Assembly: GCF_017358165.1 (NCBI RefSeq)
Contig: NZ_CP071446.1
Coordinates: 558,001-622,000, forward strand
Direction: 5' to 3'
Origin: Thermosipho ferrireducens
Lineage (GTDB): Bacteria; Thermotogota; Thermotogae; Thermotogales; Fervidobacteriaceae
DNA length: 64,000 nt
Made by a program: the position numbers and the translations under genes. Under the pieces are notes generated by a model. That model was not told where the DNA came from. It did no database searches and was given only the letters and a program-made list of their open reading frames with translations. Shown here piece by piece: positions 9,346 to 64,000 of the stretch (position 1 is its first letter; each line of letters begins with the position of its first letter).

Positions 9346-9426
9346 AAATAACATGGGACACACTCTTACTGACCTTATGCTATAATATGAGGGAAATAGA
9401 AGATTTATATGCCTGGAGGTGTTTTA

Positions 9427-9995: not shown

Positions 9996-10012
9996 ATAAG
10001 TCCCTTATTCTT

Positions 10013-10140: not shown

Positions 10141-10195
10141 CCAAGCATGCTATTATATGGTATGATATATAGTAGGATATTTAGGGGGCGATATT

Positions 10196-10856: not shown

Positions 10857-10904
10857 GTAAACTCTTGCAAGACCGTTCATTCGTGAAACGAAAGAGTATC
10901 ACTT

Positions 10905-11515: not shown

Positions 11516-11550
11516 CTAAATATGGTATAATTCACTCGAGGTGAAATTTA

Positions 11551-11790: not shown

Positions 11791-11999
11791 AAATCAGGTA
11801 TTCAAAAGAAGTTGATGCTCTTTATATAAGACTTAACGAAAATAAAATAGTAGATTCGGATGAAATAAATGAAAACATAATAGTAGATTATGACGCTCAG
11901 GGAAATATAGTAGCAATAGAAATACTTCACGCTTCTGACAAAGTAGACATAGATGAAATATTTATTAGAGCACTTCCAAAAGTATTGGTAGAAACATAA
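11787..11999 (+). CDS. DUF2283 protein, antitoxin candidate
   Basis: A 70-residue protein. MKIRYSKEVDALYIRL and IIVDYDAQGNIVAIEILHAS are the defining strands of DUF2283. It overlaps the DUF4258 gene by four bases and shares its ribosome site (GGAGG). It is likely the antitoxin partner. Confidence 0.8.
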   Translation: MKIRYSKEVDALYIRLNENKIVDSDEINENIIVDYDAQGNIVAIEILHASDKVDIDEIFIRALPKVLVET

Positions 12000-12398
12000 A
12001 TAGATCTGCCGCTCACCTATTGATTGTTTTAAATATCTATCTTAGCATTTCAAACATTATTTCTTGTTATTATGAACATATCTTCTTTTCCCGGTCATCC
12101 CAAAATCCCACTTTTTTATTGTCATCCCGTCCTTCTTTCCTGTCATCCCGAGGACTATTCCTCTCCTGTCATCCTGAGGAATATTCTTCTTTTGTTTGTC
12201 ATCCCGAGGAATTTTCTTCTCTTGTCATCCCGAGGAACGAAGTGACGAGGGATCTTTCTTTTTTGTCATCCTGAGGAGCGCCAGCGACGAAGGATCTTTT
12301 TCCTTATTGTCATTCCGAACGTACGTGAGGAATCTTAATCTTTTCCCCAACCCTCACCAACCCTCACCAACCCTCGCCAACCTTGCTAACTCTCGCCA
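12000..12398. repeat. Repeat cluster at left edge of the glycan island
   Basis: The first 90 bp are AT-rich without a gene. Then palindromic units (GTCATCCCGAGGAAT..., GTCATCCTGAGGAGC...) follow, and nonamers run up to the promoter at 12399. This is the last repeat cluster before a 31-kb stretch that has none. Confidence 0.8.
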
Positions 12399-14481: not shown

Positions 14482-15644
14482 AGAAAAAAGCCCTAATTAC
14501 CGGTATCACAGGCCAGGACGGCTCATATTTAGCGGAACTACTTTTAGAAAAAGGATATGAAGTACACGGATTGATTAGAAGATCATCAACATTTAACACA
14601 AGAAGAATAGACCATTTATATAAAGATCCACATGAAGAGGGGGCAAGATTATTCTTGCATTACGGAGACATGACAGATTCAACAATGCTTGTAAACTTTA
14701 TTCAACAAATCCAACCAGATGAAATATACAACCTTGCTGCGCAAAGTCATGTAAAAGTATCATTTGAAATACCAGAATACACAGCAAACTCAGATGCATT
14801 GGGAACGTTAAGACTACTTGAAGCAATAAGGCTTCTCGGCTTAGAAAAGAAAGTAAAATTCTACCAGGCATCTACAAGTGAGCTCTTTGGAAAGGTGCAG
14901 GAAATCCCCCAAAAAGAAACAACACCATTCTATCCACGAAGTCCATACGCAGCTGCAAAATTATACGCATATTGGATAACAATAAACTACAGAGAAGCGT
15001 ACAATATGTTTACCTGTAATGGAATATTATTCAACCATGAATCAGAAAGAAGAGGCGAAACATTTGTAACAAGAAAAATAACACGAGCAGCGACAAGGAT
15101 CTTATTGGGAACACAAGAAAAATTATACCTTGGAAATCTAAATGCAAAAAGAGATTGGGGATATGCAAAAGATTATGTAAAAGGAATGTGGCTTATGCTT
15201 CAGCAGCAAGAGCCAGATGATTATATCCTTGCAACAGGTGAAACACATTCTGTAAGAGAATTCTGCGAAAAAACATTTGAAAACCTGGGAATAAAACTTG
15301 AATGGGAAGGAAAAGATATAAATGAAAAAGGAATAATTAAAAACATAGAAAAAGACAAATTAATAGACTTTGTAGAAAAAGTAAAACAAAGCCACCCGGA
15401 TTTAGAAAACTTTAAATTGAATCTTCAGCACCTAAAAAAAGGAAAAACAGTAGTAGAAGTAGATCCAAAATACTTCAGACCCACAGAAGTAGATATACTC
15501 TTAGGAGATGCAAGCAAAGCAAGGGAAAAACTTGGCTGGAAACCAGAAGTAACCTTTGACGAATTAATACAAAAAATGGTAAAATATGACTTGATGCTTG
15601 CAATAAAAGAAAAACACAGAAATGAAATAATAAAAGAAGGGTGA
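14478..15644 (+). CDS. gmd: GDP-mannose 4,6-dehydratase, copy 1
   Basis: A 388-residue short-chain dehydrogenase that converts GDP-mannose to GDP-4-keto-6-deoxymannose. [19 protein letters not shown] is the NADP-binding glycine motif. [36 protein letters not shown] contains the catalytic Tyr-x3-Lys, and [16 protein letters not shown] is family-specific. The start is TTG 14478, with GGAGG upstream and a four-base overlap with the GT2 gene. Copies lie at 25607 (full, starting ATG) and 35211 (3' fragment). Copy 1 and copy 2 look identical over nearly all their length. Confidence 0.95.
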
Positions 15645-15651
15645 TCATAAA

Positions 15652-16716
15652 ATGGAAAAAGATTCAAAGATATACGTAGCGGGGCACAGAGGGCTTGTTG
15701 GTTCAGCTATTGTTAGAAAATTAAAAGAGCTTGGATATACAAATATAATAACAAAAACACATAAAGAACTTGACCTTACAGACCAAAAAGCAACAAGAGA
15801 ATTTTTTGAAAAAGAAAGGCCAGAATATGTATTTTTAGCAGCGGCAAAGGTTGGAGGAATACTTGCAAATAACACATACAAAGCAGAATTTATATACCAA
15901 AACATAATGATAGCTGGAAATGTAATAGAAGCATCGTATAGATACGGTGTAAAAAAACTTCTAAATCTTGGTTCATCATGTATATATCCAAAATATGCAC
16001 CACAACCAATGAAAGAAGAATATCTACTTACAGGAGAACTTGAACCAACAAATGAACCCTATGCGATAGCAAAAATCTCTGCAATAAAAATGGTAAGGTA
16101 TTTTAACGAGCAATACGGCACAAACTTTATAAGCGTAATGCCAACAAACCTTTATGGACCTAATGATAATTTTAATCTTGAAACATCTCATGTATTGCCC
16201 GCACTTTTGAGAAAATTTCATTTAGGAAAATTATTGATGGAAGAAAGATATGAAGATATAATAAAAGATGTAGAAAAGTATCCAATAGGATTTGGACTTG
16301 ATAAAGAAATAAATAAAGAAGATCCAAAGACAATAGAAAAGGTATTAGAAAAAGTAGGAATAACTAAAGAATCAATAACAGTATGGGGGACAGGAGAAGT
16401 ATATAGAGAATTTATGTATGTGGATGATCTAGCTGATGCTTGTATATATTTAATGAATGAAGTTGAAGCAGAAAAAATGAAAAAAATATCACCAGACTAC
16501 TTTGTAAACATAGGAACAGGAGAAGATGTAAAGATAAAAGATTTGGTAGAAATGATAAAAGAAATAGTGGGATACAAAGGAAAAATAAAATGGGATACAA
16601 GTAAACCCGATGGTACACCAAGGAAGTTATTGGATGTAACAAGGTTGAATAAACTGGGGTGGAGATATAAAATATCTTTGGAAATGGGAATAAAAATGTT
16701 AGTAAATAACATTTAG
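15652..16716 (+). CDS. fcl: GDP-L-fucose synthase, copy 1
   Basis: A 354-residue epimerase-reductase that makes GDP-L-fucose from the Gmd product. [14 protein letters not shown] is the nucleotide-binding loop and [15 protein letters not shown] the conserved active-site segment. [10 protein letters not shown] holds the Tyr-x3-Lys pair. The protein is about 35 residues longer than usual because of an insert ([20 protein letters not shown]...KVLEKVG). It lies eight bases after gmd. Two more copies exist: a truncated one at 26778 and a full one at 36536 with a different last 16 residues. Confidence 0.94.
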
Positions 16717-20838: not shown

Positions 20839-22041
20839 ATGAAAATATTACATATATCACGATTTTATAATGATGGATATGGCTATCAAGAGAATATTTT
20901 GCCTTATTACCAAAAATTATTGGGGCATGAAGTGGTCCATATAACTTCAGATAGAATGTCAGCGTTTGTACCACCTGAAAAAAGAATAGTAGGTGTGAAA
21001 GAATATTATGAAAATGGTGTTAAAATAATCCGACTTCCTGTAAAAGGAAAATTTAAAAAAAGATATGTTTTTCTTCATGGACTATACAAAACCATTGAAA
21101 AAGAAAAACCTGATTATATTTTCCATCATGGATTGACTTCTCTATCAATTTTTACTGTAGTTAAATATAAGAAAGCACATCCGGGAGTTTTTTTAGCGGT
21201 TGATAATCATGCAGATATTAACATCTCGCACGGAAGTGTCACTTGGAAATTATTATTGTTTTGGAAAATTTTATTAAAAAAATGTTATAAACATATAGAT
21301 CTAATTTTCGGTGTAACTCCATTGAGATGTTTGTTCCCAATAAAATATTTATCTGCACCAATAGATAAGATTAGGTTTTTGCCCATTGGAGCTGATACAA
21401 AAAATGTTCCTAAGGAAAATATGTTTGAGTTAAGGAAAAAATATGGTTTTGATAAAAATGATCTAATTATTGTTACAGGGGGCAAAATTACTAAAAGAAA
21501 AAGAATGGATAAGATACTTGATGCTTTTAAAATTATAGAAGGTGAAAATGTTAAGTTAATAATATTTGGGAAAATATTTGACAAAGACTTTGAGAAAAAG
21601 ATGGTAAAAACAAAAAATGTTAAATATTTAGGATGGCTTGATAGAAAAAAAACTTTGGAAGTTTTAAAGTTAGCTGATATTGCTATATGGAATACACAAC
21701 ATACAACATTAATAGAAGACGCAATAGCCACTGAAACACCACTTATATTACGGTATTATGGCACAACAGCTCATTTTATAGATGGAAATGGTTTGTATTT
21801 ATACAGCAACTCAGTTAAAGAAATATACGAAAAAATCAAATTATTAATTGAAAACAAAGAATTTCTAAATAAGATGAAAAAAGCTTCGATGAAAATGAGT
21901 AAACTCCTTTCGTATGAAAATGTTGCAAAAGAGAGTATAGAGTATTACTATGATTCTTCTCCAAAATTTATTCACAAATATTTTATGAATGACAAATTTA
22001 TCGATGAAAATTATGAGCACTTTGAAAAAATATCTTATTAG
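20839..22041 (+). CDS. Glycosyltransferase, GT4-like
   Basis: A 400-residue GT-B protein. MKILHISRFYNDGYGYQENILPYY is the start of the acceptor domain. The donor domain contains LIIVTGGKITKRKRMDKILDAF, KLIIFGKIF and KYLGWLDRKKTLEVLKLADIAIW. The usual second glutamate region reads TLIEDAIATETPLIL. AGGAGG precedes the ATG. The stop codon TAG is formed by the first bases of the inserted IS110 element (from 22038), so a few C-terminal residues may have been lost or replaced. Confidence 0.8.
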   Translation: MKILHISRFYNDGYGYQENILPYYQKLLGHEVVHITSDRMSAFVPPEKRIVGVKEYYENGVKIIRLPVKGKFKKRYVFLHGLYKTIEKEKPDYIFHHGLTSLSIFTVVKYKKAHPGVFLAVDNHADINISHGSVTWKLLLFWKILLKKCYKHIDLIFGVTPLRCLFPIKYLSAPIDKIRFLPIGADTKNVPKENMFELRKKYGFDKNDLIIVTGGKITKRKRMDKILDAFKIIEGENVKLIIFGKIFDKDFEKKMVKTKNVKYLGWLDRKKTLEVLKLADIAIWNTQHTTLIEDAIATETPLILRYYGTTAHFIDGNGLYLYSNSVKEIYEKIKLLIENKEFLNKMKKASMKMSKLLSYENVAKESIEYYYDSSPKFIHKYFMNDKFIDENYEHFEKISY

Positions 22042-22116
22042 TCACCGGTAATAAGTCAAGAGCAAAAAGAGAAAAAAGCAAAATTGTAACAAAAGGTACA
22101 AAAGGTCATTGAAAGA

Positions 22117-23277
22117 TTAGTTTGACACATGGGTTGTTTCAAAAGGTTTGTAAGGGACGTTGTTTTTAAGCATATAGTAGATACTTCTTACAAGTTTTCT
22201 AGCAGTAAGTACAACAGCAGCTTTGTGAGCTTTACCTTCATTTCGTTTGGATTTGTAGTAATCTCTAAGCACAGGATCGAATCTAATAGCACTTGAAGCT
22301 GCCTGGTAGAGATAATAACGTAAATACTTATTACCTTTCTTAGAGAGTGACTTGTGGTTATTAACCACTTTACCAGAATCGTTTAAATCCCAGCGAAGGC
22401 CAGCGTATGAGGCTAACTTAGAATGGGATTTAAAGCGATTAATATCAACTATCTCTGAAATAATAGAAACAGCAAGGACAACAGATATACCTGGGATAGT
22501 ATGGAGAGTAGTATTGAGTCTATCAAAATAAAACTTAAGCTGTTTATCAATGGATTTAATCTGACTTTTTAAGAGTTTAACTCTGTCAAAGGTTAGAGAA
22601 ATAGTAAAATTAGCGGTATTAAAATCATTTAAAGTAGAGCGATAAACCTTAGAGATAATACTTTTAAGTTTTTTAGTAAAGTCAATATTAAGTCTTTTTT
22701 TGGAAAGAGAAGAGACAATATCGAACAATTCATCAATGGACATATTAACAATATCCTCAGCAGAATAATCGGATAAGATATTGAGTAAAGTATTGGACAA
22801 ATTAAGATTAGAAGAAAGACCGGGGAAATAAGAAGAAATAAGATTAGCAAGATAAGTTTTTTCTTTAACAAGCTGAGAAGAAAGATAAAATCTAAACCTG
22901 GTAAGTTCTTTAAGAGAAATAAAAAAAGACTCATTTGGAAGAAAAGGAACGAGTTTTTCAGGAAACTTTAGAGCAACTTTTTGAATAAGGATAGCATCCA
23001 GTTTGTCGGTTTTAGGAAGATTAAGAATCTTTCTGGTTTTGGAAACATCAAATGGAGAGACATAAAAAAGATTCTTAAAACCATGAGAGAAAAGAAAACC
23101 AAAAAGATTCTTAGAATAAACACCAGTAGATTCAAGGACAAAAGAAGTAGACTTATCGGGAAATAAAGAAACAAGAGATTCATAACCATCGATAGAGTTT
23201 GGAAGGATGCCTTTTAAGGAGTTATCAAAAAAGAAAGAAAAAAAGTCTTTGGAAATATCAATACCAACAAAAGACAT
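22117..23277 (-). CDS. IS110-family DEDD transposase/recombinase
   Basis: A 386-residue protein read from ATG 23277; GTG 23286 is an alternative start. FVGIDISKDFF has the first Asp, VLEST the Glu and LPKTDKLDA the third and fourth acidic residues of the RuvC-like DEDD domain. The C-terminal Tnp_20 domain has HTIPGISVVLAVSIISEI (a helix-hairpin-helix) and SKLASYAGL. It ends with GNKYLRYYLYQAASSAIRFDP, which contains the conserved serine region. It works with a bridge RNA made from the non-coding end of the element. All catalytic motifs are present, so it is likely active. Confidence 0.92.
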   Translation of the reverse strand: MSFVGIDISKDFFSFFFDNSLKGILPNSIDGYESLVSLFPDKSTSFVLESTGVYSKNLFGFLFSHGFKNLFYVSPFDVSKTRKILNLPKTDKLDAILIQKVALKFPEKLVPFLPNESFFISLKELTRFRFYLSSQLVKEKTYLANLISSYFPGLSSNLNLSNTLLNILSDYSAEDIVNMSIDELFDIVSSLSKKRLNIDFTKKLKSIISKVYRSTLNDFNTANFTISLTFDRVKLLKSQIKSIDKQLKFYFDRLNTTLHTIPGISVVLAVSIISEIVDINRFKSHSKLASYAGLRWDLNDSGKVVNNHKSLSKKGNKYLRYYLYQAASSAIRFDPVLRDYYKSKRNEGKAHKAAVVLTARKLVRSIYYMLKNNVPYKPFETTHVSN

Positions 23278-23300
23278 AAAAAACACATCCTTTCAAATAA

Positions 23301-23490
23301 AATCCAACTCTGGGTATGAAGGCAAAAGACTCTCGCACTATGTAGGAGCTCAAAGCTCATTCACCGAGTAACAATTCAACCTTCATACCAAAGTTAGTCA
23401 GACTAAACCAGGCACTTACGTGCAAGGAGGGACTGAATTACTTTAGTTATATGATAACTCAGAGTTGGATTGATTTGCAAATTTCTCTAC
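23301..23490 (-). ncRNA. Candidate IS110 bridge RNA, copy A
   Basis: This region forms nested stems: outer AATCCAACTCTG (23301-23312) with CAGAGTTGGATT (23460-23471), inner GGTATGAAGG (23313-23322) with CCTTCATACC (23380-23389), hairpin GCAC-ttac-GTGC (23412-23423) and hairpin AGTTAT-atg-ATAACT (23445-23459). A reverse-strand TATAAT at 23494-23499 would start the RNA near 23488, at the element edge. In IS110 elements such as IS621, a bridge RNA from the same end has a target-binding loop followed by a donor-binding loop. The loop flanking the GCAC hairpin is in the target-loop position. Confidence 0.75.
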
Positions 23491-23515
23491 TACATTATAC
23501 ACGAGGGGTGACATA

Positions 23516-25606: not shown

Positions 25607-26770
25607 ATGAAAAAAGCCCTAATCACTGGTATCACAGGCCAGGACGGCTCATATTTAGCGGAACTACTTTTAGAAAAAGGATATGAAGTACACGGATTGA
25701 TTAGAAGATCATCAACATTTAACACAAGAAGAATAGACCATTTATATAAAGATCCACATGAAGAGGGGGCAAGATTATTCTTGCATTACGGAGACATGAC
25801 AGATTCAACAATGCTTGTAAACTTTATTCAACAAATCCAACCAGATGAAATATACAACCTTGCTGCGCAAAGTCATGTAAAAGTATCATTTGAAATACCA
25901 GAATACACAGCAAACTCAGATGCATTGGGAACGTTAAGACTACTTGAAGCAATAAGGCTTCTCGGCTTAGAAAAGAAAGTAAAATTCTACCAGGCATCTA
26001 CAAGTGAGCTCTTTGGAAAGGTGCAGGAAATCCCCCAAAAAGAAACAACACCATTCTATCCACGAAGTCCATACGCAGCTGCAAAATTATACGCATATTG
26101 GATAACAATAAACTACAGAGAAGCGTACAATATGTTTACCTGTAATGGAATATTATTCAACCATGAATCAGAAAGAAGAGGCGAAACATTTGTAACAAGA
26201 AAAATAACACGAGCAGCGACAAGGATCTTATTGGGAACACAAGAAAAATTATACCTTGGAAATCTAAATGCAAAAAGAGATTGGGGATATGCAAAAGATT
26301 ATGTAAAAGGAATGTGGCTTATGCTTCAGCAGCAAGAGCCAGATGATTATATCCTTGCAACAGGTGAAACACATTCTGTAAGAGAATTCTGCGAAAAAAC
26401 ATTTGAAAACCTGGGAATAAAACTTGAATGGGAAGGAAAAGATATAAATGAAAAAGGAATAATTAAAAACATAGAAAAAGACAAATTAATAGACTTTGTA
26501 GAAAAAGTAAAACAAAGCCACCCGGATTTAGAAAACTTTAAATTGAATCTTCAGCACCTAAAAAAAGGAAAAACAGTAGTAGAAGTAGATCCAAAATACT
26601 TCAGACCCACAGAAGTAGATATACTCTTAGGAGATGCAAGCAAAGCAAGGGAAAAACTTGGCTGGAAACCAGAAGTAACCTTTGACGAATTAATACAAAA
26701 AATGGTAAAATATGACTTGATGCTTGCAATAAAAGAAAAACACAGAAATGAAATAATAAAAGAAGGGTGA
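25607..26770 (+). CDS. gmd: GDP-mannose 4,6-dehydratase, copy 2
   Basis: A full-length copy, one residue shorter than copy 1 at the N-terminus. It starts at ATG 25607 after GGGGAGG. The copies differ at the very start (atcactggt here, attaccggt in copy 1) and then look identical through the gene and into fcl. Catalytic YAAAK and glycine motifs are intact. Such identity points to a recent duplication or gene conversion. It is followed eight bases later by a truncated fcl. Confidence 0.94.
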
Positions 26771-26777
26771 TCATAAA

Positions 26778-27599
26778 ATGGAAAAAGATTCAAAGATATA
26801 CGTAGCGGGGCACAGAGGGCTTGTTGGTTCAGCTATTGTTAGAAAATTAAAAGAGCTTGGATATACAAATATAATAACAAAAACACATAAAGAACTTGAC
26901 CTTACAGACCAAAAAGCAACAAGAGAATTTTTTGAAAAAGAAAGGCCAGAATATGTATTTTTAGCAGCGGCAAAGGTTGGAGGAATACTTGCAAATAACA
27001 CATACAAAGCAGAATTTATATACCAAAACATAATGATAGCTGGAAATGTAATAGAAGCATCGTATAGATACGGTGTAAAAAAACTTCTAAATCTTGGTTC
27101 ATCATGTATATATCCAAAATATGCACCACAACCAATGAAAGAAGAATATCTACTTACAGGAGAACTTGAACCAACAAATGAACCCTATGCGATAGCAAAA
27201 ATCTCTGCAATAAAAATGGTAAGGTATTTTAACGAGCAATACGGCACAAACTTTATAAGCGTAATGCCAACAAACCTTTATGGACCTAATGATAATTTTA
27301 ATCTTGAAACATCTCATGTATTGCCCGCACTTTTGAGAAAATTTCATTTAGGAAAATTATTGATGGAAGAAAGATATGAAGATATAATAAAAGATGTAGA
27401 AAAGTATCCAATAGGATTTGGACTTGATAAAGAAATAAATAAAGAAGATCCAAAGACAATAGAAAAGGTATTAGAAAAAGTAGGAATAACTAAAGAATCA
27501 ATAACAGTATGGGGGACAGGAGAAGTATATAGAGAATTTATGTATGTGGATGATCTAGCTGATGCTTGTATATATTTAATGAATGAAGTTGAAGCATGA
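26778..27599 (+). pseudogene. fcl: GDP-L-fucose synthase, copy 2, 3'-truncated
   Basis: Identical to copy 1 until residue 273 (...YLMNEVEA), where the gene is joined to the 3' part of a sugar-transferase gene. The last 80 residues, which close the substrate domain, are missing, so activity is doubtful. The joint falls in the shared hexamer GAAGCA, and the stop codon TGA comes from the joined sequence (gaagcATGAaaaaac). Confidence 0.9.
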
Positions 27600-34543: not shown

Positions 34544-35204
34544 AAAAATGGAAACAAGCTCAACCAAAAGAAGGTATATAGAATAATGAAAGAAAATGGA
34601 TTACTTTTCAAAGTTAAACACAAAAAAGCTTGTAGAACCAAACAAAAAAAGATAAAGCCAACAAGGCCAAGGGAAGTGTTAGGGATAGACATGACAAAGG
34701 TATACACAAGAGATGGAGGATGGGCGTATTACATAGCAGTGATCGATTGGTATACAAGAGAACTCCTTGGAAGTGAAATAAGTCTTAGGTGTAGAACAAC
34801 TAAAAGGTTAAAAGCGTTAGACAAAGCTATAAATAAGGGATATCCAGAAGGAGTAAGAGGTAAAGGAATAATACTAGTAAGTGACAATGGAAGTCAACCA
34901 ACAAGTACGAAATTTCTGAAAGAATGTACTGTACTGGGGATAAAACAGATATTTACAAGCTACAACAATCCAAAAGGTAATGCCAATACGGAAAGGTATT
35001 TTAGGACGTACAAAGAAGAAGTAGCATGGGTATTAGATAATCCAAATTACGAAGAACTCTGTGAGAAAACCAGGTCATTTGAAAAGTTCTATAACGAAGA
35101 ATATCCTCACAGTGCTTTAGGATACAAAGATTCAAAGGAGGAATTCGAAGAATTCGTAAGTCTATACAAAATTGCTTAATTTTTTGTCCAATTTTTCGGG
35201 GAGC
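34544..35204 (+). mobile_element. 5'-truncated IS3 copy (orfB 3' part)
   Basis: From 34544 the sequence is nearly identical to 41247-41906 of the complete IS3 element. It includes orfB from NGNKLNQKKVYRIMKENG to the end (stop at 35177-35179) and the right terminal repeat (TTTTTCGGGGAGCA). The left half is missing at the IS256 boundary. The DDE residues (GIDMTKVY, VSDNG, NTERYFRTYKEE) remain, but there is no start or orfA. Confidence 0.88.
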
Positions 35205-36396: not shown

Positions 36397-36535
36397 TATA
36401 CCTTTTCCTTCCTATTTTTGAAACAGACCCAAGTAACCTTTGACGAATTAATACAAAAAATGGTAAAATATGACTTGATGCTTGCAATAAAAGAAAAACA
36501 CAGAAATGAAATAATAAAAGAAGGGTGATCATAAA

Positions 36536-37597
36536 ATGGAAAAAGATTCAAAGATATACGTAGCGGGGCACAGAGGGCTTGTTGGTTCAGCTATTGTTAG
36601 AAAATTAAAAGAGCTTGGATATACAAATATAATAACAAAAACACATAAAGAACTTGACCTTACAGACCAAAAAGCAACAAGAGAATTTTTTGAAAAAGAA
36701 AGGCCAGAATATGTATTTTTAGCAGCGGCAAAGGTTGGAGGAATACTTGCAAATAACACATACAAAGCAGAATTTATATACCAAAACATAATGATAGCTG
36801 GAAATGTAATAGAAGCATCGTATAGATACGGTGTAAAAAAACTTCTAAATCTTGGTTCATCATGTATATATCCAAAATATGCACCACAACCAATGAAAGA
36901 AGAATATCTACTTACAGGAGAACTTGAACCAACAAATGAACCCTATGCGATAGCAAAAATCTCTGCAATAAAAATGGTAAGGTATTTTAACGAGCAATAC
37001 GGCACAAACTTTATAAGCGTAATGCCAACAAACCTTTATGGACCTAATGATAATTTTAATCTTGAAACATCTCATGTATTGCCCGCACTTTTGAGAAAAT
37101 TTCATTTAGGAAAATTATTGATGGAAGAAAGATATGAAGATATAATAAAAGATGTAGAAAAGTATCCAATAGGATTTGGACTTGATAAAGAAATAAATAA
37201 AGAAGATCCAAAGACAATAGAAAAGGTATTAGAAAAAGTAGGAATAACTAAAGAATCAATAACAGTATGGGGGACAGGAGAAGTATATAGAGAATTTATG
37301 TATGTGGATGATCTAGCTGATGCTTGTATATATTTAATGAATGAAGTTGAAGCAGAAAAAATGAAAAAAATATCACCAGACTACTTTGTAAACATAGGAA
37401 CAGGAGAAGATGTAAAGATAAAAGATTTGGTAGAAATGATAAAAGAAATAGTGGGATACAAAGGAAAAATAAAATGGGATACAAGTAAACCCGATGGTAC
37501 ACCAAGGAAGTTATTGGATGTAACAAGGTTGAATAAACTGGGGTGGAGATATAAAATAGAATTAAAATCTGGCATAAAAAAATATATGAATGGGTAA
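36536..37597 (+). CDS. fcl: GDP-L-fucose synthase, copy 3
   Basis: A 353-residue copy identical to copy 1 up to ...LGWRYKI. It then has a different tail ([12 protein letters not shown] instead of [13 protein letters not shown]). The divergence point at about 37556 marks the end of the duplicated block. Catalytic motifs are complete. Its upstream gmd is broken and a terminator lies 140 bp upstream, so it may be poorly transcribed. Confidence 0.9.
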
Positions 37598-38020: not shown

Positions 38021-38099
38021 TTAGTCACCGGTAATAAGTCAAGAGCAAAAAGAGAAAAAGGCAAAATTGTAACAAAAGGCACAAAAGGTCATTGAAAGA

Positions 38100-38316
38100 T
38101 TAGTTTGACACATGGGTTGTTTCAAAAGGTTTGTAAGGGACGTTGTTTTTAAGCATATAGTAAATACTTCTTACAAGTTTTCTTGTAGTAAGTACAACAG
38201 CAGCTTTGTGAGCTTTACCTTCATTTCGTTTGGATTTGTAGTAATCTCTAAGCACAGGATCGAATCTAATAGCACTTGAAGCTGCCTGGTAGAGATAATA
38301 ACGTAAATACTTATTA
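38100..38316 (-). pseudogene. IS110 transposase C-terminal remnant
   Basis: The reverse frame reads GNKYLRYYLYQAASSAIRFDPVLRDYYKSKRNEGKAHKAAVVLTTRKL to the stop, identical to the last 72 residues of the full transposase except for one A-to-T change. The DEDD domain is gone. Confidence 0.9.
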
Positions 38317-38328
38317 CCTTTCAAATAA

Positions 38329-38518
38329 AATCCAACTCTGGGTATGAAGGCAAAAGAGTCTCGCGCTATGTAGGAGCTCAAAGCTTATTCACCGAGTAAC
38401 AATTCAACCTTCATACCAAAGTTAGTCAGACTTAGCCAAGCACTTACGTGCAGGGGGGAACTGAATTACTTTAGTTATATGATAACTCAGAGTTGGATTG
38501 ATTTGCAAATTTCTCTAC
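38329..38518 (-). ncRNA. Candidate IS110 bridge RNA, copy B
   Basis: All stems of copy A are conserved (outer stem 38329-38340 with 38488-38499, plus the inner hairpins). By eye there are nine substitutions relative to copy A. Six of them lie in the internal loop on the two sides of the GCAC-ttac-GTGC hairpin, the expected target-binding loop. The other three are in the donor-side loop. The reverse-strand TATAAT is also kept. Confidence 0.75.
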
Positions 38519-38543
38519 TACATTATACACGAGGAGGTGAACA

Positions 38544-41035: not shown

Positions 41036-41880
41036 TAACACTTCTTCTTGAAAAAGGATTTAATGTATCAGAAGCTTTAAGGTATTTGAAAATCAATAGA
41101 AGTACATATTATTACAAACCAAAGGGATACAGCCAAAGAAAGAGCAGACGAAAAGAAGATGATGAAAAAATACTTAAAGAAATAAACAAGCTCAAAAAAG
41201 AACATCCATACTGGGGATACCGCAGAATCTGGGCGATGTTAAGAAAAAATGGAAACAAGCTCAACCAAAAGAAGGTATATAGAATAATGAAAGAAAATGG
41301 ATTACTTTTCAAAGTTAAACACAAAAAAGCTTGTAGAACCAAACAAAAAAAGATAAAGCCAACAAGGCCAAGGGAAGTGTTAGGGATAGACATGACAAAG
41401 GTATACACAAGAGATGGAGGATGGGCGTATTACATAGCAGTGATCGATTGGTATACAAGAGAACTCCTTGGAAGTGAAATAAGTCTTAGGTGTAGAACAA
41501 CTAAAAGGTTAAAAGCGTTAGACAAAGCTATAAATAAGGGATATCCAGAAGGAGTAAGAGGTAAAGGAATAATACTAGTAAGTGACAATGGAAGTCAACC
41601 AACAAGTACGAAATTTCTGAAAGAATGTACTGTACTGGGGATAAAACAGATATTTACAAGCTACAACAATCCAAAAGGTAATGCCAATACGGAAAGGTAT
41701 TTTAGGACGTACAAAGAAGAAGTAGCATGGGTATTAGATAATCCAAATTACGAAGAACTCTGTGAGAAAACCAGGTCATTTGAAAAGTTCTATAACGAAG
41801 AATATCCTCACAGTGCTTTAGGATACAAAGATTCAAAGGAGGAATTCGAAGAATTCGTAAGTCTATACAAATCTGCTTGA
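41006..41880 (+). CDS. IS3 OrfB transposase (made by -1 frameshift)
   Basis: The frame is open from the A8 tract (40999-41006) through REIVTLLLEKGFNVSEALRYLKINRSTYYYKPKG to the stop at 41880. WGYRRIWAMLRKNG belongs to the HTH_21 part. GIDMTKVYTRDGGWAYYIAVIDWYTRE, LVSDNGSQPTSTKFL and NTERYFRTYKEEVAWVL carry the DDE residues. A first internal ATG is at 41086. It is probably made as an OrfAB fusion. Confidence 0.9.
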
Positions 41881-44254: not shown

Positions 44255-44545
44255 TTAGCGAGGTTGGCGAGAGTTAGTAAAGGAATAAGATCCTTCGTCG
44301 CTGACGCTCCTCAGGATGACATCCCCACCGCTTTGCTTGGAATGACAAAAAATAAGATCCCTCACATGCGTTCGGGATGACAATAAGGAAAAAGATCCCT
44401 CGTCATTACATTCCTCGGGATGACAGGAGAGGGATATTCCTCGGGATGACCTTTTCTACCTTTGTCATTCCGAACCCGAAGGGTGAGGAATCTTGTAATT
44501 GGCGAGGTTGGCGAGAGTTAGCGAGTGTTGGCGAGGGTTAGTGCG
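44255..44545. repeat. Palindromic repeats and GCGAGGTTGG nonamers
   Basis: Here the nonamer runs read gcgaggttggcgagagttag, the reverse complement of those in the left part of the window. Palindromic units lie between two nonamer runs. Confidence 0.8.
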
Positions 44546-44582
44546 TATTGATTGATAATGAAAAATTTAAGGAGGGATATGG

Positions 44583-44795
44583 ATGAAGAGGCTTAGTTTG
44601 GTTTACAGGAATACAACTGAAGGGACAACGTTAAGGGTTAATCTTCCTGATCCTGTGGAAAATATAAACACAACTGAGTTAGAACAGGATGCACAGGCTT
44701 TGATAGACAATGGGCTTGTTCCAGCAGGGTATGTTTTTGATGAAGCACGTATTGTTGAAACAAATACAAATGTTGTTATCGATTTGATTCAGTGA
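44583..44795 (+). CDS. DUF2922 small protein
   Basis: A 70-residue protein. RLSLVYRNTTEGTTLRVNLPDPVENINTTELEQDAQALIDNGL and DEARIVETNTNVVIDL match DUF2922. AAGGAGG precedes ATG 44583. It is separated by 13 bases from the next small gene and is likely cotranscribed with it. Role unknown. Confidence 0.82.
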   Translation: MKRLSLVYRNTTEGTTLRVNLPDPVENINTTELEQDAQALIDNGLVPAGYVFDEARIVETNTNVVIDLIQ

Positions 44796-44808
44796 GTAGG
44801 TGAATAGT

Positions 44809-44997
44809 ATGCTGTGGGATATAGTTAAACTTTTTATGGAGCTTGTGGAAAGACCGGGGGATGGGGAGAATAAGAAGAAAGAGGTAATAGAATTGGTTGA
44901 TGAGATTTTTGATGAATTGAATATAAATTTACCAAGAGAAATGATTTATGCGTTTTTATCCCCTGCGATAGATTATCTCGCAAGGGTGATGTATTAA
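44809..44997 (+). CDS. Small hypothetical protein after DUF2922
   Basis: A 62-residue protein with an N-terminal amphipathic helix (MLWDIVKLFMELVE), a charged linker and a hydrophobic C-terminal helix (MIYAFLSPAIDYLARVMY). TAGGTGA upstream supports ATG 44809. No family recognised. It is in operon with the DUF2922 gene. Confidence 0.65.
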   Translation: MLWDIVKLFMELVERPGDGENKKKEVIELVDEIFDELNINLPREMIYAFLSPAIDYLARVMY

Positions 44998-44999
44998 GC

Positions 45000-45145
45000 T
45001 GGCAAGATTGGCGAAAAACAAGATCCCTCGTCACTTCGTTCCTCGGGATGACAGGAGAGGGATATTCCTCGGGATGACCTTTTCTACCTTTGTCATTCCG
45101 AACCTGAAGGGTGAGGAATCTTTTAATTAGCAAGGTTAGAAGGTG
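45000..45145. repeat. Palindromic-repeat patch
   Basis: Two or three palindromic units (GATCCCTCGTCACTTCGTTCC..., GTCATTCCGAACCTGAAGGG...) bounded by single nonamers. Confidence 0.75.
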
Positions 45146-58795: not shown

Positions 58796-59375
58796 CGTTC
58801 CGTAATTACATTCCTCGGAATTACAGGAAAAGAAAAGAGTCATTCCAAGGAGCGAAACGGCAAAGAATACTCCTTCCATGTCATTCCGAGGAGCACATGC
58901 GACGAGGAATCTTATAATTGGCGAGTGTTGGCGAGATTGGCGAGGTTAGTAAAAAAATAAGATTCCTCACATTCGTTCGGAATGACAATAGGGAAAAGAT
59001 CCTTCGCCTTCCTGCTCCTCAGGATGACACCCCCCTCACATGCGTTCGGGATGACAAAAAAATAAGATCCCTCGTCACTTCGTTCCTCGGGATGACATTC
59101 TTTTTTAGTCATTCTGAGCACGGAGTGCAAAGAACCTTGTTCTTTTTGTCATTCCGAGGAGCGCAGCGACGAGGAATCTTAAATTAGCAAGATTAGCGAA
59201 ATTGGCGAGAGTTAGCGAGGTTGGTAAAGGAACAAGAACTTTGGTTGCTGCATTTCTCAGGATGACATGTTTTTCGAAAGGATAATAAGATTCTTCATGC
59301 TTGCGCGTTCAGAATGACAAAAAAGTGATAACAAAAAAACAAGATTCCTCACATGCGTTCGGAATGACAAAAAAT
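58796..59375. repeat. Long palindromic-repeat cluster after the defence block
   Basis: About 580 bp of palindromic units and nonamers in both orientations. 59257-59345 repeats the sequence at 43738-43825 almost exactly. No gene supported. Confidence 0.85.
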
Positions 59376-59419
59376 AAGATCCCCTTATTATATCTGGATA
59401 TAATCAATCCATTTAAAAT

Positions 59420-59449
59420 TTGACTCCGGTGTATCATATATGATACAAT
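59420..59449 (+). promoter_or_regulatory. TAC module 1 promoter with palindromic operator
   Basis: -35 TTGACT (59420-59425) and -10 TACAAT (59444-59449) are 18 bp apart. A perfect 16-bp palindrome, GTATCATATATGATAC (59431-59446), fills the spacer and overlaps the -10. The Xre antitoxin at 59873 is the likely repressor. Confidence 0.75.
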
Positions 59450-59463
59450 AAGGTGGTAAGAAG

Positions 59464-59883
59464 ATGGGACAGTTTTATTGGAAAAGTTATAAACTATATT
59501 ATTTTGATGAAGACAACGGAAAAAATTATGTTCTGGAGTTTTTAGAAACTATTGCAGAAAATGATAAAGCTATCGTAATTGATTTTTTAACTAATTTTGC
59601 CGATAAAATTGACGAGGGAAAAGGTATTCCATCAGAAATGTTTGAGCAAGAGATAATCAAAAAATTAGAATCTTCCAGCGGGCGTCTTTATGAGTATCGT
59701 GCAAGATCCAAAAAGCTTAGAAAAGTGATTCGTATTTATTTCGGGGTTGTAAAACAACATAAAATCATTGTGCTATTATCAGGGCATTTTAAAAAAGGAA
59801 AAAATGAGCAACAAAAAGAGATAAACGACGCCGAAAAACGATTGAAACGATTTATAAGGAGGAGAGAAAGAAATGAGACATGA
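59464..59883 (+). CDS. HigB/Gp49-like RNase toxin, TAC module 1
   Basis: A 139-residue protein. VLEFLETIAENDKAIVIDFLTNFADKIDEG, IIKKLESSSGRLYEYRARSKKLRKVIRIYFGVVKQHKIIVLLSGHFKKGK is the RelE-fold Gp49/HigB pattern, with basic residues for mRNA cleavage and the HxFxKK end. AAGGTGG is upstream of ATG 59464. Toxin first, antitoxin second, SecB-like chaperone third is the known TAC order. It overlaps the antitoxin by 11 bases. Confidence 0.85.
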   Translation: MGQFYWKSYKLYYFDEDNGKNYVLEFLETIAENDKAIVIDFLTNFADKIDEGKGIPSEMFEQEIIKKLESSSGRLYEYRARSKKLRKVIRIYFGVVKQHKIIVLLSGHFKKGKNEQQKEINDAEKRLKRFIRRRERNET

Positions 59884-60367
59884 AGAAGTGAAAAAGATAC
59901 TTTTTGAGAAAAATGAGGAACTAAAAAGACTTTATAATGAAAGGAAACCTTTAATTAACTTCATTCATGAAATAATTGAAATGAGATATAAAAAAAACTT
60001 AAGTCAAGAAGATTTAGCAAATATTTTAGGCACTTCAAGGACTAATATTTCCAGAATAGAAAGAGGAAAGCAAAATTTAAGTTATAAAATGATGTTTAAA
60101 ATTGTCTCTGCACTTGGAGGAGACTTATTTATAACTGCTAAAGGGAATGATGTTATAAAACTGACGGATGAATCAAAAAAGGTTTTAGAGACATTATTGA
60201 AAAGATATAATAAACCCAAAGAACAAATAATAGAAGTATCACTTAAGATGCTTCTGGAGCGCATAAGAAGTTATGAATTAAGTGAAAAAGTTTCACAACC
60301 TGAAATAGAAGGATACATTGATGAGAAGATACCTGAATTGGAGGATGAATTATGCCTGCTAAGTTAA
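59873..60367 (+). CDS. Xre-type HigA antitoxin with chaperone-addiction tail, TAC module 1
   Basis: A 164-residue protein. LINFIHEIIEMRYKKNLSQEDLANILGTSRTNISRIERGKQNLSYKMMFKIVSALGGDL is the helix-turn-helix. The C-terminal 70 residues after it (LTDESKKVLETLLKRYNKPKEQ...EGYIDEKIPELEDEL) are longer than in ordinary HigA. In TAC systems such a tail makes the antitoxin depend on its SecB-like chaperone. The chaperone gene starts 16 bases inside this one. Confidence 0.85.
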   Translation: MRHEEVKKILFEKNEELKRLYNERKPLINFIHEIIEMRYKKNLSQEDLANILGTSRTNISRIERGKQNLSYKMMFKIVSALGGDLFITAKGNDVIKLTDESKKVLETLLKRYNKPKEQIIEVSLKMLLERIRSYELSEKVSQPEIEGYIDEKIPELEDELCLLS

Positions 60368-60795
60368 CTAAGGAGCAGTTAAAAAAGTATTCTGAATTTT
60401 TGAAAGGTCTTGAATTGGAAGATATCTGGGTTAAATCTGATCGGTACACTTTTTATGATGATATGCATAAACCTACACCAGGAAATTTTGATGTTAGAGT
60501 AAGTGTTAAAAAAGATAATACAGAAATAGATGTTGCAAAAGGTAGAGCGATTATGGGGTATGAGATAGTTATATCTGAAAAAGAAAAGATAATATTTAAA
60601 GATGAAATAGACCTGGTTGTGAATCTTCAGATTAGTAAAGATTCGATAGATGAAATTTTTTCGGACAATGCTCTTAAAGAATTTTTCATTGGTAAGCAAC
60701 TTGTAAAAATAACATGGCCATTTATCAGGGAAATTTTTTATACAAATCTTGCACGAGTAGGAATTAGACCAATCATTTTACCTTTTTTGAAATAG
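60352..60795 (+). CDS. SecB-like chaperone, TAC module 1
   Basis: A 147-residue protein. The segment FFIGKQLVKITWPFIREIFYTNLARVGIRPIILPFLK matches the SecB core W-P-x2-R-E and the end of the fold. The middle part (GYEIVISEKEKIIFKDEIDLVVNLQI) gives the beta strands. It is not a housekeeping SecB, as it is coupled to higBA. It would fold or protect the antitoxin. GGAGGATGA serves ATG 60352. Confidence 0.85.
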   Translation: MPAKLTKEQLKKYSEFLKGLELEDIWVKSDRYTFYDDMHKPTPGNFDVRVSVKKDNTEIDVAKGRAIMGYEIVISEKEKIIFKDEIDLVVNLQISKDSIDEIFSDNALKEFFIGKQLVKITWPFIREIFYTNLARVGIRPIILPFLK

Positions 60796-61140
60796 ATAGT
60801 TGTTTCATTCCGAACCCGAAGGGTGAGGAATCTTATAATTAGCGAGATTGGCGAGATTGGCGAGATTAGCGAGGTTAGCAAGATTGGCGAGGTTAGTCCC
60901 CGCGTGTGTCATTCCGAGGAGCGTATGCGACGAGGAATCTTGTATTTAGCGAGAGTTAGCGAGGTTAGTAAGATTAGCGAGATTGGTAAAATAAGATCCT
61001 TCGTCGCTGGCGCTCCTCAGGATGACATCCCCCTCACGTTCGTTCGGAATGACAATAGGGAAAAGATCCTTCGTCTTCCTGCTCTTCAGGATGACAGGAG
61101 AAAGGGTTGTCATTCCTGGGAGCAAAGGATGTGAGGGATC
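60796..61140. repeat. Palindromic repeats and long nonamer runs
   Basis: The nonamer run at about 60839-60895 has six or more units (gcgagattggcgagattgg...). A second run lies at about 60953-60988. Palindromic units in both polarities surround them. Confidence 0.85.
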
Positions 61141-61236
61141 AAGTTTAAAGAGACATCCATCTTTTTGACAGAGACAAAAAGTTAGAAATTACACTCAGCA
61201 GATAGGTATGTGATATAATGATTCTGAGGTGAGAGT

Positions 61237-61464
61237 ATGGAGAAACATACAAAGTATAAATTTACCGTTGTGATTGAGAAAGATGAGAATGGATATTTTG
61301 CATACTGCCCTGAACTTCAGGGATGCTATACTCAGGGAAATACTTATGAAGAAGCAGTTGAGAGCATAAAAGATGCTATAACTTTGCACATTGAAGATAG
61401 ATTGGCAAGCGGTGAAGAAATCCCGAGAGCAGAGAGTGTTTCTTTGACAGTAGTTGAGGTATGA
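61237..61464 (+). CDS. hicB: HicB antitoxin
   Basis: A 75-residue protein. YKFTVVIEKDENGYFAYCPELQGCYTQGNTYEEAVESIKDAITLHIED is the classic HicB fold, a partial RNase-H-like domain. GAGGTGAG serves the ATG and TATAAT is at about 61213-61218. The order is hicB then hicA, as in many Firmicutes-type modules. The hicA start is two bases after the stop. Confidence 0.9.
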   Translation: MEKHTKYKFTVVIEKDENGYFAYCPELQGCYTQGNTYEEAVESIKDAITLHIEDRLASGEEIPRAESVSLTVVEV

Positions 61465-61465
61465 T

Positions 61466-61696
61466 ATGCCCAGGCTACCACGACTAACAGCAAGAGAAAT
61501 AATCCCAATTCTTGAAAGTCATGGGTTTATACTTGTACGTTCAAGTGGTAGTCACCGAATTTACAAGAATTCAGAAGGAAAGCGTGTAACGGTTCCATTT
61601 CACTCCGGAAAGATTTTACATCCCAAGCTGTTGAAAAGCATAATACGAGACATGGGATTAACTGAAAAAGAATTTTTGAAATTACTTAGTAAGTAG
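61466..61696 (+). CDS. hicA: HicA toxin
   Basis: A 76-residue protein, a little longer than many HicA. LTAREIIPILESHGFILVRSSGSHRIYKNSEGKRVTVPFHSGKILHPKLLKSIIRDMGL has the double-stranded RNA binding fold with the catalytic His in GSHRIY. GAGG at 61456 fits ATG 61466. The frame is intact. The toxin is an mRNA interferase, neutralised by HicB. Confidence 0.9.
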   Translation: MPRLPRLTAREIIPILESHGFILVRSSGSHRIYKNSEGKRVTVPFHSGKILHPKLLKSIIRDMGLTEKEFLKLLSK

Positions 61697-61699
61697 CAT

Positions 61700-61870
61700 T
61701 CCTATCGCTGCCTGTATGTCATTAAAAACAAGATTCCTCGCTTTGCTCGGAATGACAAAAAAATAAGATCCCTCGTCACTTTGTTCCTCGGGATGACATT
61801 CCCTTAGCTTTACTCGGAATGACAATAAGGAAAAGCTCCTTCGTCACTGACGTTCCTCAAGATGACAAGA
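61700..61870. repeat. Palindromic-repeat patch
   Basis: Units of the AAGATTCCTCGCTTTGCTCGGAATGACA and GATCCCTCGTCACTTTG... variants, some degraded. No gene. Confidence 0.75.
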
Positions 61871-61885
61871 AAGCGAATGTTAGTA

Positions 61886-62025
61886 AGCTTAAAGAAAAGA
61901 AAAAAATTAAAACAAACAAAAGCCACAGGAAACCCTGTGGTTTTCGTTTTTGTAATTGAGTATGATATAATCCATCTGTTATGTAACTATAATATTACGC
62001 TTGGATTGATGAATTTTGATAACGA
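61886..62025 (+). repeat. Right copy of the terminator-promoter repeat
   Basis: Matches the left copy at 45807-45955 in order and sequence: AAAGAAAAG, the CCACAGG/CCTGTGG terminator at 61923-61950, gtaattgagtatgatataat and attacgcttggattgatgaattt. Similarity ends near 62025. From 62025 to 62165 nothing is supported. Confidence 0.7.
61923..61950 (+). terminator. Rho-independent terminator
   Basis: CCACAGG (61923-61929), loop AAAC, CCTGTGG (61934-61940), then TTTTCGTTTTT. Twin of 45840. Confidence 0.8.
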
Positions 62026-62173
62026 AATTATATGTTTTTTTGGTGAGACGATTTTTTTGAGAAAAGATGGTTTTTGTAGCATCAAAATGTTAAATGTATC
62101 GTTTTGAAAGAAACCGCATATTATAATGTAATAATTGGTTTTAATTATGTTTAATTATAATAATTTGAATATT

Positions 62174-62200
62174 TTGAATATAACACATATGTTATATAAT
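62174..62200 (+). promoter_or_regulatory. TAC module 2 promoter with ATAACA/TGTTAT dyad
   Basis: TTGAAT (62174-62179) and TATAAT (62195-62200) frame the dyad ATAACA-cata-TGTTAT (62180-62195). The layout is the same as in TAC module 1 but with a different operator sequence. Confidence 0.65.
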
Positions 62201-62211
62201 AAGGAGGAGTT

Positions 62212-62611
62212 ATGGGGTATATAAGATACTTTCCAGATGATGAATCCTCTGCTACAAGAAGATTGAAAACGCTGATAGAAAAAAATAAATAAGAATATGT
62301 ATAGAAAATTAAAAGCCAAACTTTTTCAACTGGACAAAATAGGTGCAGACATTGTATACACAATTTTAGAAGAAGAGCAGTGCTTGAGTCATAAAAATAA
62401 GACGATTGTAAGATTAGGAGACAATTTTTATGAATTACGTATACCAAAGCAGAGTAAAGAAGGTGTGTTTAGAGTTTATTTTACAATATTTCCAGATAAT
62501 GAAAGGATAATGATTCTTGATGCAGAGTATAAGACTGAAAAAGAACCCAAAAGATTAAAAGCTGCACAAAACAAATTAGAAAGATTAATAAAGGAGGTTG
62601 GTTGGAAATGA
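62212..62611 (+). pseudogene. HigB/RelE-like toxin of TAC module 2, frameshifted
   Basis: ATG 62212 after AAGGAGGAG opens MGYIRYFPDDESSATRRLKTLIEKNK and stops at 62292. The +1 frame, open from 62276, continues RKLKAKLFQLDKIGADIVYTILEEEQCLSHK...FYELRIPKQSKEGVFRVYFTIFPDNERIMILDAEYKTEKEP to 62611, a RelE/HigB-type fold. Loss of one base in the A7 run (62279-62285) would restore a toxin of about 132 residues. Alternatively, ATG 62297 gives a 104-residue protein. Confidence 0.75.
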
Positions 62612-62994
62612 GAAAATTAAAAGAGTTAATTGAAAATGATGAATTAGACAAATTTGAATTGAGAGCCTTTGATGAAGATGAAGAATATGAAAATTTTCTT
62701 ATAAAGATAGTTTCTCAGATAGTGAAGTTAAGAGTAGAAAAAAGAATTTCACAAAAAGAATTGGCAAAAAAACTTGGAACAAAACAAAGTGCGATTTCAA
62801 GGTTCGAGAACTTCAGTTCTAATCCAACTCTTAAGTTTCTTTTCAAAGTGTTGAAAGCTTTAGATGCGGAAATTGAGATAACCGATAAGAGCAAGGGATA
62901 TGAGAAATATAATATTGTGATTAATGACAAAGAAAGTAACTTTGAAAGATATTATGTAGATTCCATAGAAAAAGTGTGGGAAAGAGTATCATGA
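62608..62994 (+). CDS. Xre-type HigA antitoxin, TAC module 2
   Basis: A 128-residue protein. LIKIVSQIVKLRVEKRISQKELAKKLGTKQSAISRFENFSSNPTLKFLFKVLKALDAEIEI is the helix-turn-helix. The tail (KYNIVINDKESNFERYYVDSIEKVWERVS) is the likely chaperone-dependent part. AAGGAGG upstream fits ATG 62608. The toxin and chaperone genes both overlap it by four bases. Confidence 0.85.
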   Translation: MRKLKELIENDELDKFELRAFDEDEEYENFLIKIVSQIVKLRVEKRISQKELAKKLGTKQSAISRFENFSSNPTLKFLFKVLKALDAEIEITDKSKGYEKYNIVINDKESNFERYYVDSIEKVWERVS

Positions 62995-63446
62995 TGAAAG
63001 CTCAAAAAAGTATTCTTGAATTTTTGGATTACAGGATTACAAAGTTTGAATATATCAACGCATCATTTAAAGAAATTAAAAACATTAATTATGAAGTATT
63101 GATTAATACTAAAATTGGAAAACCTGTATTAGAAGATAAGAGTAATAAATATTTAAGTCGATTAGATTTAGATATACAGATAAAAGGGAAAAGCGGTAGA
63201 ACTGTTCCTGTAAAAGTAAAGTGTTCAATATCTGGACTTTTTAGCGCTTCTACGGAAATAAATGAAGAGGAATTTTTGAAGCTTTGCTCCACAAGTGGAT
63301 TTGCAAACTTGATAATGATTTCAAGAAGTGTGATTATTTCTTTTACTTCGCAGACAGGGAACAAACCTATTGTGTTGCCATTAATAAATCTTTTGAAAAC
63401 GTATGAAAAACGTTTCAAAGAAGGGAATATTAAAAAGGGAGATTAG
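62991..63446 (+). CDS. SecB-like chaperone, TAC module 2
   Basis: A 151-residue protein. SRLDLDIQIKGKSGRTVPVKVKCSISGLFSASTEINEEEFLKLCSTSGFANLIMISRSVIISFTSQTGNKPIVLPLINLL follows the SecB-like fold: beta strands, a helix and a P-I-V-L-P end in place of PPLLLP. It overlaps the antitoxin (ATGA). Similarity to the module 1 chaperone is low, so the two modules are separate acquisitions and not a local duplication. Confidence 0.78.
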   Translation: MMKAQKSILEFLDYRITKFEYINASFKEIKNINYEVLINTKIGKPVLEDKSNKYLSRLDLDIQIKGKSGRTVPVKVKCSISGLFSASTEINEEEFLKLCSTSGFANLIMISRSVIISFTSQTGNKPIVLPLINLLKTYEKRFKEGNIKKGD

Positions 63447-64000
63447 CGAGGTCAGTAAAGAAATAAGATCCCTCGTCATTACATTCCTCGGGATGACATT
63501 CCCCTTTTTTGTCATTCTGAGCCCGTAGGGCGAAGAATCTTTCTTTTCTTTGTCATTCTGAGGAGTGAAACGACGAAGAATCTTAAAATAACAATATTGG
63601 CGAGGTTAGCGAGGTTGGCGAGGTTAGCGAGTGTTGGTAAAATAAGATCCTTCGTCGCTGGCACTTCTCAGGATGACATCCCCCTCACATTCGCACGGAA
63701 TGACAAAAAATGAAGAATAAGGAATAGATTCCTCACGTGCGTTCGGAACGGCAAGGAATAAGATCCCTCGTCATTACATTCCTCGGGATGACAAGAAAAA
63801 GGGATCATTCCTGAGAGCGAGAAGGCGAGGAATTTCCCCCTCCGTGTCATTCCGAGGAGCGCATGTGACGAGGAATCTTACCCCCACTCATGTCATTCCG
63901 AACCCGAAGGGTGAGGAATCTTATAATTAGCGAGATTGGCGAGATTAGTAAAAAAAATAAGATTCCTCGCTTTGCTCGGAATGACAGGGAGTAAGATCCT
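63447..64000. repeat. Long palindromic-repeat cluster to window end
   Basis: About 550 bp of palindromic units in both polarities with nonamers (ggcgaggttagcgaggttgg) near 63600 and 63930. No gene seen. The cluster continues past the window. Confidence 0.85.

What the first reader, a model, noticed from the sequence alone, without database searches (positions are those of the whole stretch)
38021..38534. IS110 deletion derivative keeps its bridge RNA, with changes concentrated in the target loop
A 955-bp deletion at a CCTTTC repeat removed most of the recombinase gene but left both ends and the RNA. Six of nine substitutions relative to the full copy lie in the 27-nt loop around GCAC/GTGC. 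This suggests a bridge-RNA-guided, non-autonomous element with changed target choice. Partial matches of this loop to the flanks are seen in both copies, but they do not separate the two clearly.
Basis: partly seen in the sequence, partly recalled or inferred. Interest (0 to 1): 0.75.

Follow-up and report, generated by a model that had tools for sequence, protein, structure and literature searches.

The report
Jumping gene aimed at ribosome-binding sites
The short element is a decayed copy of a bacterial jumping gene whose guide RNA carries a near-copy of the ribosome's own mRNA-finding sequence, so that its family inserts just upstream of genes at their ribosome-binding sites and leaves those sites intact; the short copy itself is an ordinary relic.

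Summary
In detail: 38021-38534 is an IS110 copy with a 955-bp deletion at a 6-bp repeat. It keeps both ends and the whole predicted bridge RNA, and 6 of 9 RNA-region substitutions lie in the target loop. Loop-focused change is a rule of this RNA family: two copies in one Petrotoga-like genome differ at 11/32 loop positions and 2/134 others. The reading "non-autonomous element with changed target choice" is only partly supported. The derivative is single-copy, its own loop fits its own site no better than the full copy's loop does, and every copy hits the same class of target.
That target is the Shine-Dalgarno (SD) sequence. All 9 left ends in this genome, and most of 41 in Thermotogota, abut an SD 11-17 nt before a start codon. 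The left target guide is an anti-SD sequence; in the Petrotoga-like type it equals the 9 nt UCACCUCCU of the 16S rRNA tail. Unoccupied sites in sister species show insertion at the CT core (AG of the SD), which leaves SD and gene intact. Guide differences track the seventh SD base. IS900, also IS110 family, is already known to target translation-initiation signals; an anti-SD bridge RNA that preserves the SD is a new variant.

The parts
38025..38531 (-). IS110 deletion derivative (507 bp between CT cores)
   Evidence: alignment with the full copy, 955-bp deletion
38532..38537 (+). AGGAGG Shine-Dalgarno of the downstream glycosyltransferase gene (ATG at 38544); its AG (38532-38533) is the left CT core of the insertion
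   Evidence: sequence
38023..38024 (-). CT core at the right end
   Evidence: common end of the three right ends
38331..38499 (-). bridge RNA core of the derivative (5' stem to closing stem)
   Evidence: covariance model, 183.8 bits
38431..38462 (-). target-binding loop of the derivative; 6 of its 32 nt differ from the full copy
38452..38460 (-). left target guide of the derivative, UUCCCCCCU
   Evidence: position by alignment with the family
38431..38439 (-). right target guide of the derivative, UUGGCUAAG
38317..38322 (.). CCTTTC, the deletion junction at a 6-bp microhomology
22042..23503 (-). full IS110 element (1462 bp between CT cores)
22117..23286 (-). IS110 recombinase, 389 aa, DEDD and Transposase_20 domains
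   Evidence: Pfam PF01548 and PF02371; distant match to the IS621 and ISCro4 structures
23303..23471 (-). bridge RNA core of the full copy
   Evidence: model R1 187.5 bits; fold z -5.3
23425..23433 (-). left target guide GUCCCUCCU, complementary to SD AGGAGGGAC
23403..23411 (-). right target guide CUGGUUUAG
23359..23367 (-). left donor guide region UCGGUGAAU, matching right end CCGGTGA
   Evidence: GTGA/GAGA/GAAA states agree between guide and right end in three lineages
23494..23499 (-). TATAAT, -10 element of the RE-LE junction promoter
   Evidence: sequence
22054..22059 (-). TTGACT, -35 element of the RE-LE junction promoter (18-nt spacing once circularised)
   Evidence: sequence
23504..23510 (+). 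AGGGGTG SD of the UDP-sugar dehydrogenase gene (ATG at 23516) retained after insertion of the full copy
22040..22041 (.). CT core at the right end of the full copy; on the + strand it also completes the TAG stop codon of the upstream gene 20839-22041

Best explanation
The feature is an internally deleted, probably relic copy of an IS110-family element. The family works by bridge-RNA-guided recombination. The circular element makes a bridge RNA from a promoter rebuilt across the RE-LE junction. Its donor loop reads the element's own junction (CCGGTGA-CT-CGTG). Its target loop carries an anti-Shine-Dalgarno left guide, so the recombinase joins the element to the AG (CT core) at the upstream edge of an SD sequence, one SD-length ahead of a start codon. 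Because the core is shared, SD and start codon stay intact. The loop sequence drifts or is reselected faster than the rest of the RNA but stays within the set of SD-like sequences. Shown: anatomy, SD location, empty sites, loop variability, tracking of the seventh SD base. Inferred: guide pairing, RNA expression, activity of the full copies. The derivative could in principle be excised or reinserted by recombinase from the two full copies; nothing shows that it was.
For: Nine of 9 left ends in this genome have an SD and a start codon 11-17 nt away. In Thermotogota 34 of 41 junctions have a start codon with an open frame at 11-15 nt, against 3.5% of random positions (binomial 6e-43, an upper bound on strength because some copies share descent). 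Empty sites in sister species run through the SD and the CT core, and five of them match right flanks found separately at contig ends. The Petrotoga-like guide UCACCUCCU equals the tail of 16S rRNA, whose sequence GGATCACCTCCTTTCT is present in this genome. With guide base A at -7, 9 of 11 sites have A, against 23 of 77 SDs in that genome (p = 0.0015); G000 sites mostly have C (5 of 7); between the two groups p = 0.002, though SDs of both kinds are about equally common in both genomes. Fervidobacterium-like elements with 42% identical recombinase (5 of 7 sites by the 11-15 nt start-codon test, one more with CCTCCT but a start 21 nt away) and 33% identical ones (all 7 with an SD-like flank, 6 passing the start-codon test) also sit at SDs; two other IS110 groups do not. 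Loop divergence 11/32 against 2/134 within one genome.
Against: A permutation of all guide types against flanks is only suggestive (p = 0.06), but it includes decayed loops. Right-guide matching is weak beyond the first two bases. A few junctions are not at an SD (L080, L151, L205). SD sites could be over-represented because insertions inside genes are lost; that alone does not explain the exact position or the guide-type difference. No RNA expression or transposition data.
Confidence: 0.9

Rival explanations
1. The derivative is a mobile, non-autonomous element retargeted by its changed loop.
For: Both ends, donor guides and RNA are intact; full copies with matching ends exist in the same genome. 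Guide UUCCCCCCU has SD-type targets available: AGGGGGG occurs at SD position 9 times in a 0.4-Mb sample.
Against: Single copy; own loop fits its own site no better than the full copy's loop; its site TCACCTCCT is a canonical SD, not the AGGGGGG its loop predicts.
Confidence: 0.1
2. Loop substitutions in the derivative are relaxed decay of a dead copy, and the SD association reflects selection against insertions elsewhere and not guide pairing.
For: Remnants without recombinase also vary in the loop; insertions in coding DNA would be purged.
Against: Outside the loop the derivative's RNA is nearly unchanged (3/137), unlike uniform decay. Intact multi-copy types differ only in the loop. Position relative to the start codon is exact and the site base follows the guide base. 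Other IS110 groups in the phylum do not sit at SDs.
Confidence: 0.12
3. Left-end remnants are kept because the left end gives the downstream gene a promoter or leader (domestication).
For: Six left-end-only and no right-end-only remnants in this genome.
Against: The asymmetry also follows if deletions cannot cross the SD of the downstream gene; the promoter scan found nothing above shuffles in the gene's direction.
Confidence: 0.15

Closest known systems
IS621 and the IS110-group bridge-RNA elements (Durrant et al. 2024 PMC11208160; Hiraizumi et al. 2024 PMC11208158)
   Same: DEDD recombinase with Transposase_20 domain, RNA encoded in the left end upstream of the gene, target and donor loops, CT core, -35 in the right end and -10 in the left end
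   Different: Target is the SD sequence; recombinase 389 aa and only distantly similar (best PDB match E 3e-8); RNA not matched by Rfam at gathering scores
IS900 (IS110 family; Doran et al. 1997, title and citation seen in PMC8141618; details from memory)
   Same: Known to target translation-initiation signals
   Different: As remembered, IS900 goes between SD and start codon and uses the SD for its antisense hed gene. Here the insertion is on the far side of the SD, the host gene keeps its SD, and there is no antisense ORF of 100 aa or more in the full element
seekRNA-guided IS1111/IS110 elements with natural reprogramming (Siddiquee et al. 2024 PMC11187229)
   Same: RNA-guided target choice; target part of the RNA varies among relatives
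   Different: The variation here stays inside one functional target class, SD variants

Membership tests
IS110-family bridge-RNA element (full copy) | DEDD (PF01548) plus Transposase_20 (PF02371) recombinase | tested here: met
   the derivative keeps only residues 316-389
IS110-family bridge-RNA element (full copy) | Structured RNA in the left end upstream of the recombinase gene | tested here: met
IS110-family bridge-RNA element (full copy) | Same CT core on both sides, no further target duplication | tested here: met
IS110-family bridge-RNA element (full copy) | Promoter rebuilt across the RE-LE junction | tested here: met
   TTGACT-18-TATAAT by sequence; activity not tested
IS110-family bridge-RNA element (full copy) | Target loop pairs with the target site | tested here: met
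   by sequence only; left guide; right guide weak
IS110-family bridge-RNA element (full copy) | Donor loop matches the element's own ends | tested here: met
   CCGGTGA / CCGGAGA / CCGGAAA agree between donor guide and right end in three lineages
IS110-family bridge-RNA element (full copy) | RNA-guided recombination activity | not testable with these tools
   needs a transposition assay
Mobile non-autonomous (MITE-like) IS110 derivative | Several copies sharing the same internal deletion | tested here: not met
   single copy in the genome
Mobile non-autonomous (MITE-like) IS110 derivative | Both ends and RNA intact | tested here: met
IS900-type element | Antisense hed ORF spanning the element | tested here: not met
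   no + strand ORF of 100 aa or more between 22042 and 23503
IS900-type element | Insertion at translation-initiation signals | tested here: met

The most novel reading that the evidence does not exclude
Bridge RNAs of several IS110 lineages in Thermotogota use an anti-Shine-Dalgarno guide, one of them identical to the 16S rRNA tail, as a host-independent address. The element can land ahead of nearly any gene in any bacterium, keep the gene's SD, and often borrow the antisense of ATGAAAA as a -35 for its own RNA promoter. The loop diversifies among SD variants to open new sites.
Probability: 0.4. Interest if true: 0.75.

Novelty: new variant of a known kind. Interest (0 to 1): 0.55.

Why it matters
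It gives a clear natural answer to how a programmable transposon can pick a target that is common, nearly harmless and present in every bacterium: use the ribosome's own address. It also gives a set of naturally reprogrammed bridge RNAs with known sites, useful for learning guide rules and for directing insertions to positions just upstream of genes.

Tried and rejected
The genome-contig scan found only distant relatives. Rfam gave no match. A permutation of all guide types against flanks, decayed loops included, was only suggestive (p 0.06). A MITE-like family was rejected because the remnants have different breakpoints. Short remnants ending at an inner (T/C)GACTA, which resembles the right end, were considered as mini-elements; only two of six end there, so this was not pursued. 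The idea that the SD target is chosen for its -35-like antisense was not supported beyond what all SD sites show: 20/41 junctions, against 39% and 53% of unoccupied SD sites.

Full report
What was claimed and what is there. The window holds a full IS110 copy and a shorter copy. They align over both ends, the shorter lacks 955 bp, and the join lies at GAAAGG (CCTTTC). The full copy encodes a 389-aa protein with the DEDD_Tnp_IS110 and Transposase_20 domains. The shorter keeps codons 316-389 only. Of nine substitutions in the shared left-end region six fall in the target loop. The genome holds one more full copy, at 945,747-947,213. Its RNA core is identical to that of the window's full copy; its left end differs from it at two positions, both upstream of the RNA core, and the element as a whole at about 0.7%.

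Ends and core. The right flanks of the three copies with a right end diverge right after CCGGTGACT, and the left flanks before CGTGTATAATG. The only dinucleotide shared at both sides is CT. The elements proper are therefore 22042-23503 and 38025-38531. Joining right end, CT and left end gives TTGACT, 18 nt, TATAAT, as described for IS621 (PMC11208160).

The target. Read outward from the left end, every one of nine junctions in this genome gives a Shine-Dalgarno sequence at the junction and a start codon 11-17 nt away. Six of the nine are left-end remnants of 25-117 nt with different inner breakpoints; no right-end-only remnant was found. The same RNA was found in 8 of 103 genomes of the phylum. 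In 41 distinct junctions 34 have a start codon with an open frame at 11-15 nt; random positions of the window do so in 3.5%. Unoccupied orthologous sites in sister species run straight through: for example ATCTCCTC-CT-TTTAATTTTTAGG and AAAACCTC-CT-TTTTTATTGAATTATATCAG. The second continues exactly as the right flank found at another contig end. Insertion thus happens between the CT core and the sequence upstream of the SD. In the mRNA sense the AG of AGGAGG is the core and is present on both sides afterwards. In the window's full copy the same AG also completes the TAG stop codon of the upstream gene, so the insertion into this tight gene junction spares both genes.

The guide. In the target loop the 9-nt left guide is UCACCUCCU in the main Petrotoga-like type, the same letters as the 16S rRNA tail (this genome has GGATCACCTCCTTTCT). 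It is GUCCCUCCU in the full copy and UUCCCCCCU in the derivative. Does the guide choose among SD sequences? AGGAGGG and AGGAGGT are about equally common at SD position in both genomes (29 and 32; 28 and 23). Yet sites of the ACCTCCT guide carry the matching base in 9 of 11 and never the other group's base, and sites in this genome carry theirs in 5 of 7 (p 0.0015 against the pool; 0.002 between groups). The right guide agrees with the first one or two bases only. Donor guides and right ends agree in three states, GTGA, GAGA and GAAA.

Loop-focused change. They are not. Two RNA types in one Petrotoga-like genome differ at 11 of 32 loop positions and 2 of 134 others, and a third at 12 and 3. Natural reprogramming is reported for the family (PMC11187229). 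What is special here is that all loops remain SD-like.

The derivative. Counting matches of its loop and of the full copy's loop to the two sites gives 13 of 18 for own and 13 of 18 for swapped pairs on the left, and 4 of 10 each on the right (hand count). The pair therefore says nothing about retargeting. The derivative's site, TCACCTCCT, is the canonical SD and fits the Petrotoga-like guide perfectly. With one copy and no sister with the same deletion, in-place decay is the simplest reading.

Relatives. Fervidobacterium-like elements with a 42% identical recombinase have guide UUGCCCCUCCU; six of seven distinct sites end in CCTCCT, and five of seven have a start codon at 11-15 nt. A 33% identical group also sits at SDs, with the core inside the SD (TCAC-CT-CCTTA); all seven distinct sites checked have SD-like sequence and six pass the start-codon test. 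Groups in two other genomes show no such target, so the pattern is not a general property of IS110 in the phylum.

What is known. IS900, an IS110-family element of a mycobacterium, has been reported to target translation-initiation signals (Doran et al. 1997, cited in PMC8141618). I found no paper in the held library that links a bridge RNA with the Shine-Dalgarno sequence; subscription papers and supplementary target tables could not be checked.

Identity of the host. Kinship and the sizes of neighbouring genomes suggest Thermotogota, family Fervidobacteriaceae; the names Petrotoga-like and Fervidobacterium-like for relatives rest on the same inference (partly from memory).

Noticed in passing
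41 left-end junctions; SD sites of G000 and G086: A -35-like hexamer (often TTTTCA, antisense of ATGAAAA) lies 16-18 nt from the left-end TATAAT in 20 of 41 junctions, against 15% of random positions; unoccupied SD sites show it in 39-53%. SD insertion may give the integrated element a promoter for its RNA.
   Followed up: partly
L186-L193 (G016): A different IS110 group (33% identity) has its CT core inside the SD (TCAC-CT-CCTTA) and right flanks that mostly begin CCTT, matching its right guide.
   Followed up: partly
L202-L204, L063, L065 (G091, G083, G082): IS110 group inserted at CGTCATNCT-like sites, which look like dispersed intergenic repeats.
   Followed up: no
window 15547-15846, 26673-26972, 36431-36730: Three identical stretches of at least 300 nt spanning the starts of sugar epimerase genes, a sign of recent recombination within the polysaccharide cluster.
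   Followed up: no
window 34544-34843 and 41245-41544: Identical repeats of at least 300 nt on both sides of the region that holds the derivative.
   Followed up: no
window 941-12368, 44347-45102 and 58839-63986: Many copies of TGTCATCCCGAGGAACGAAGTGACGAGGGATCTT-like intergenic repeats in both orientations.
   Followed up: no
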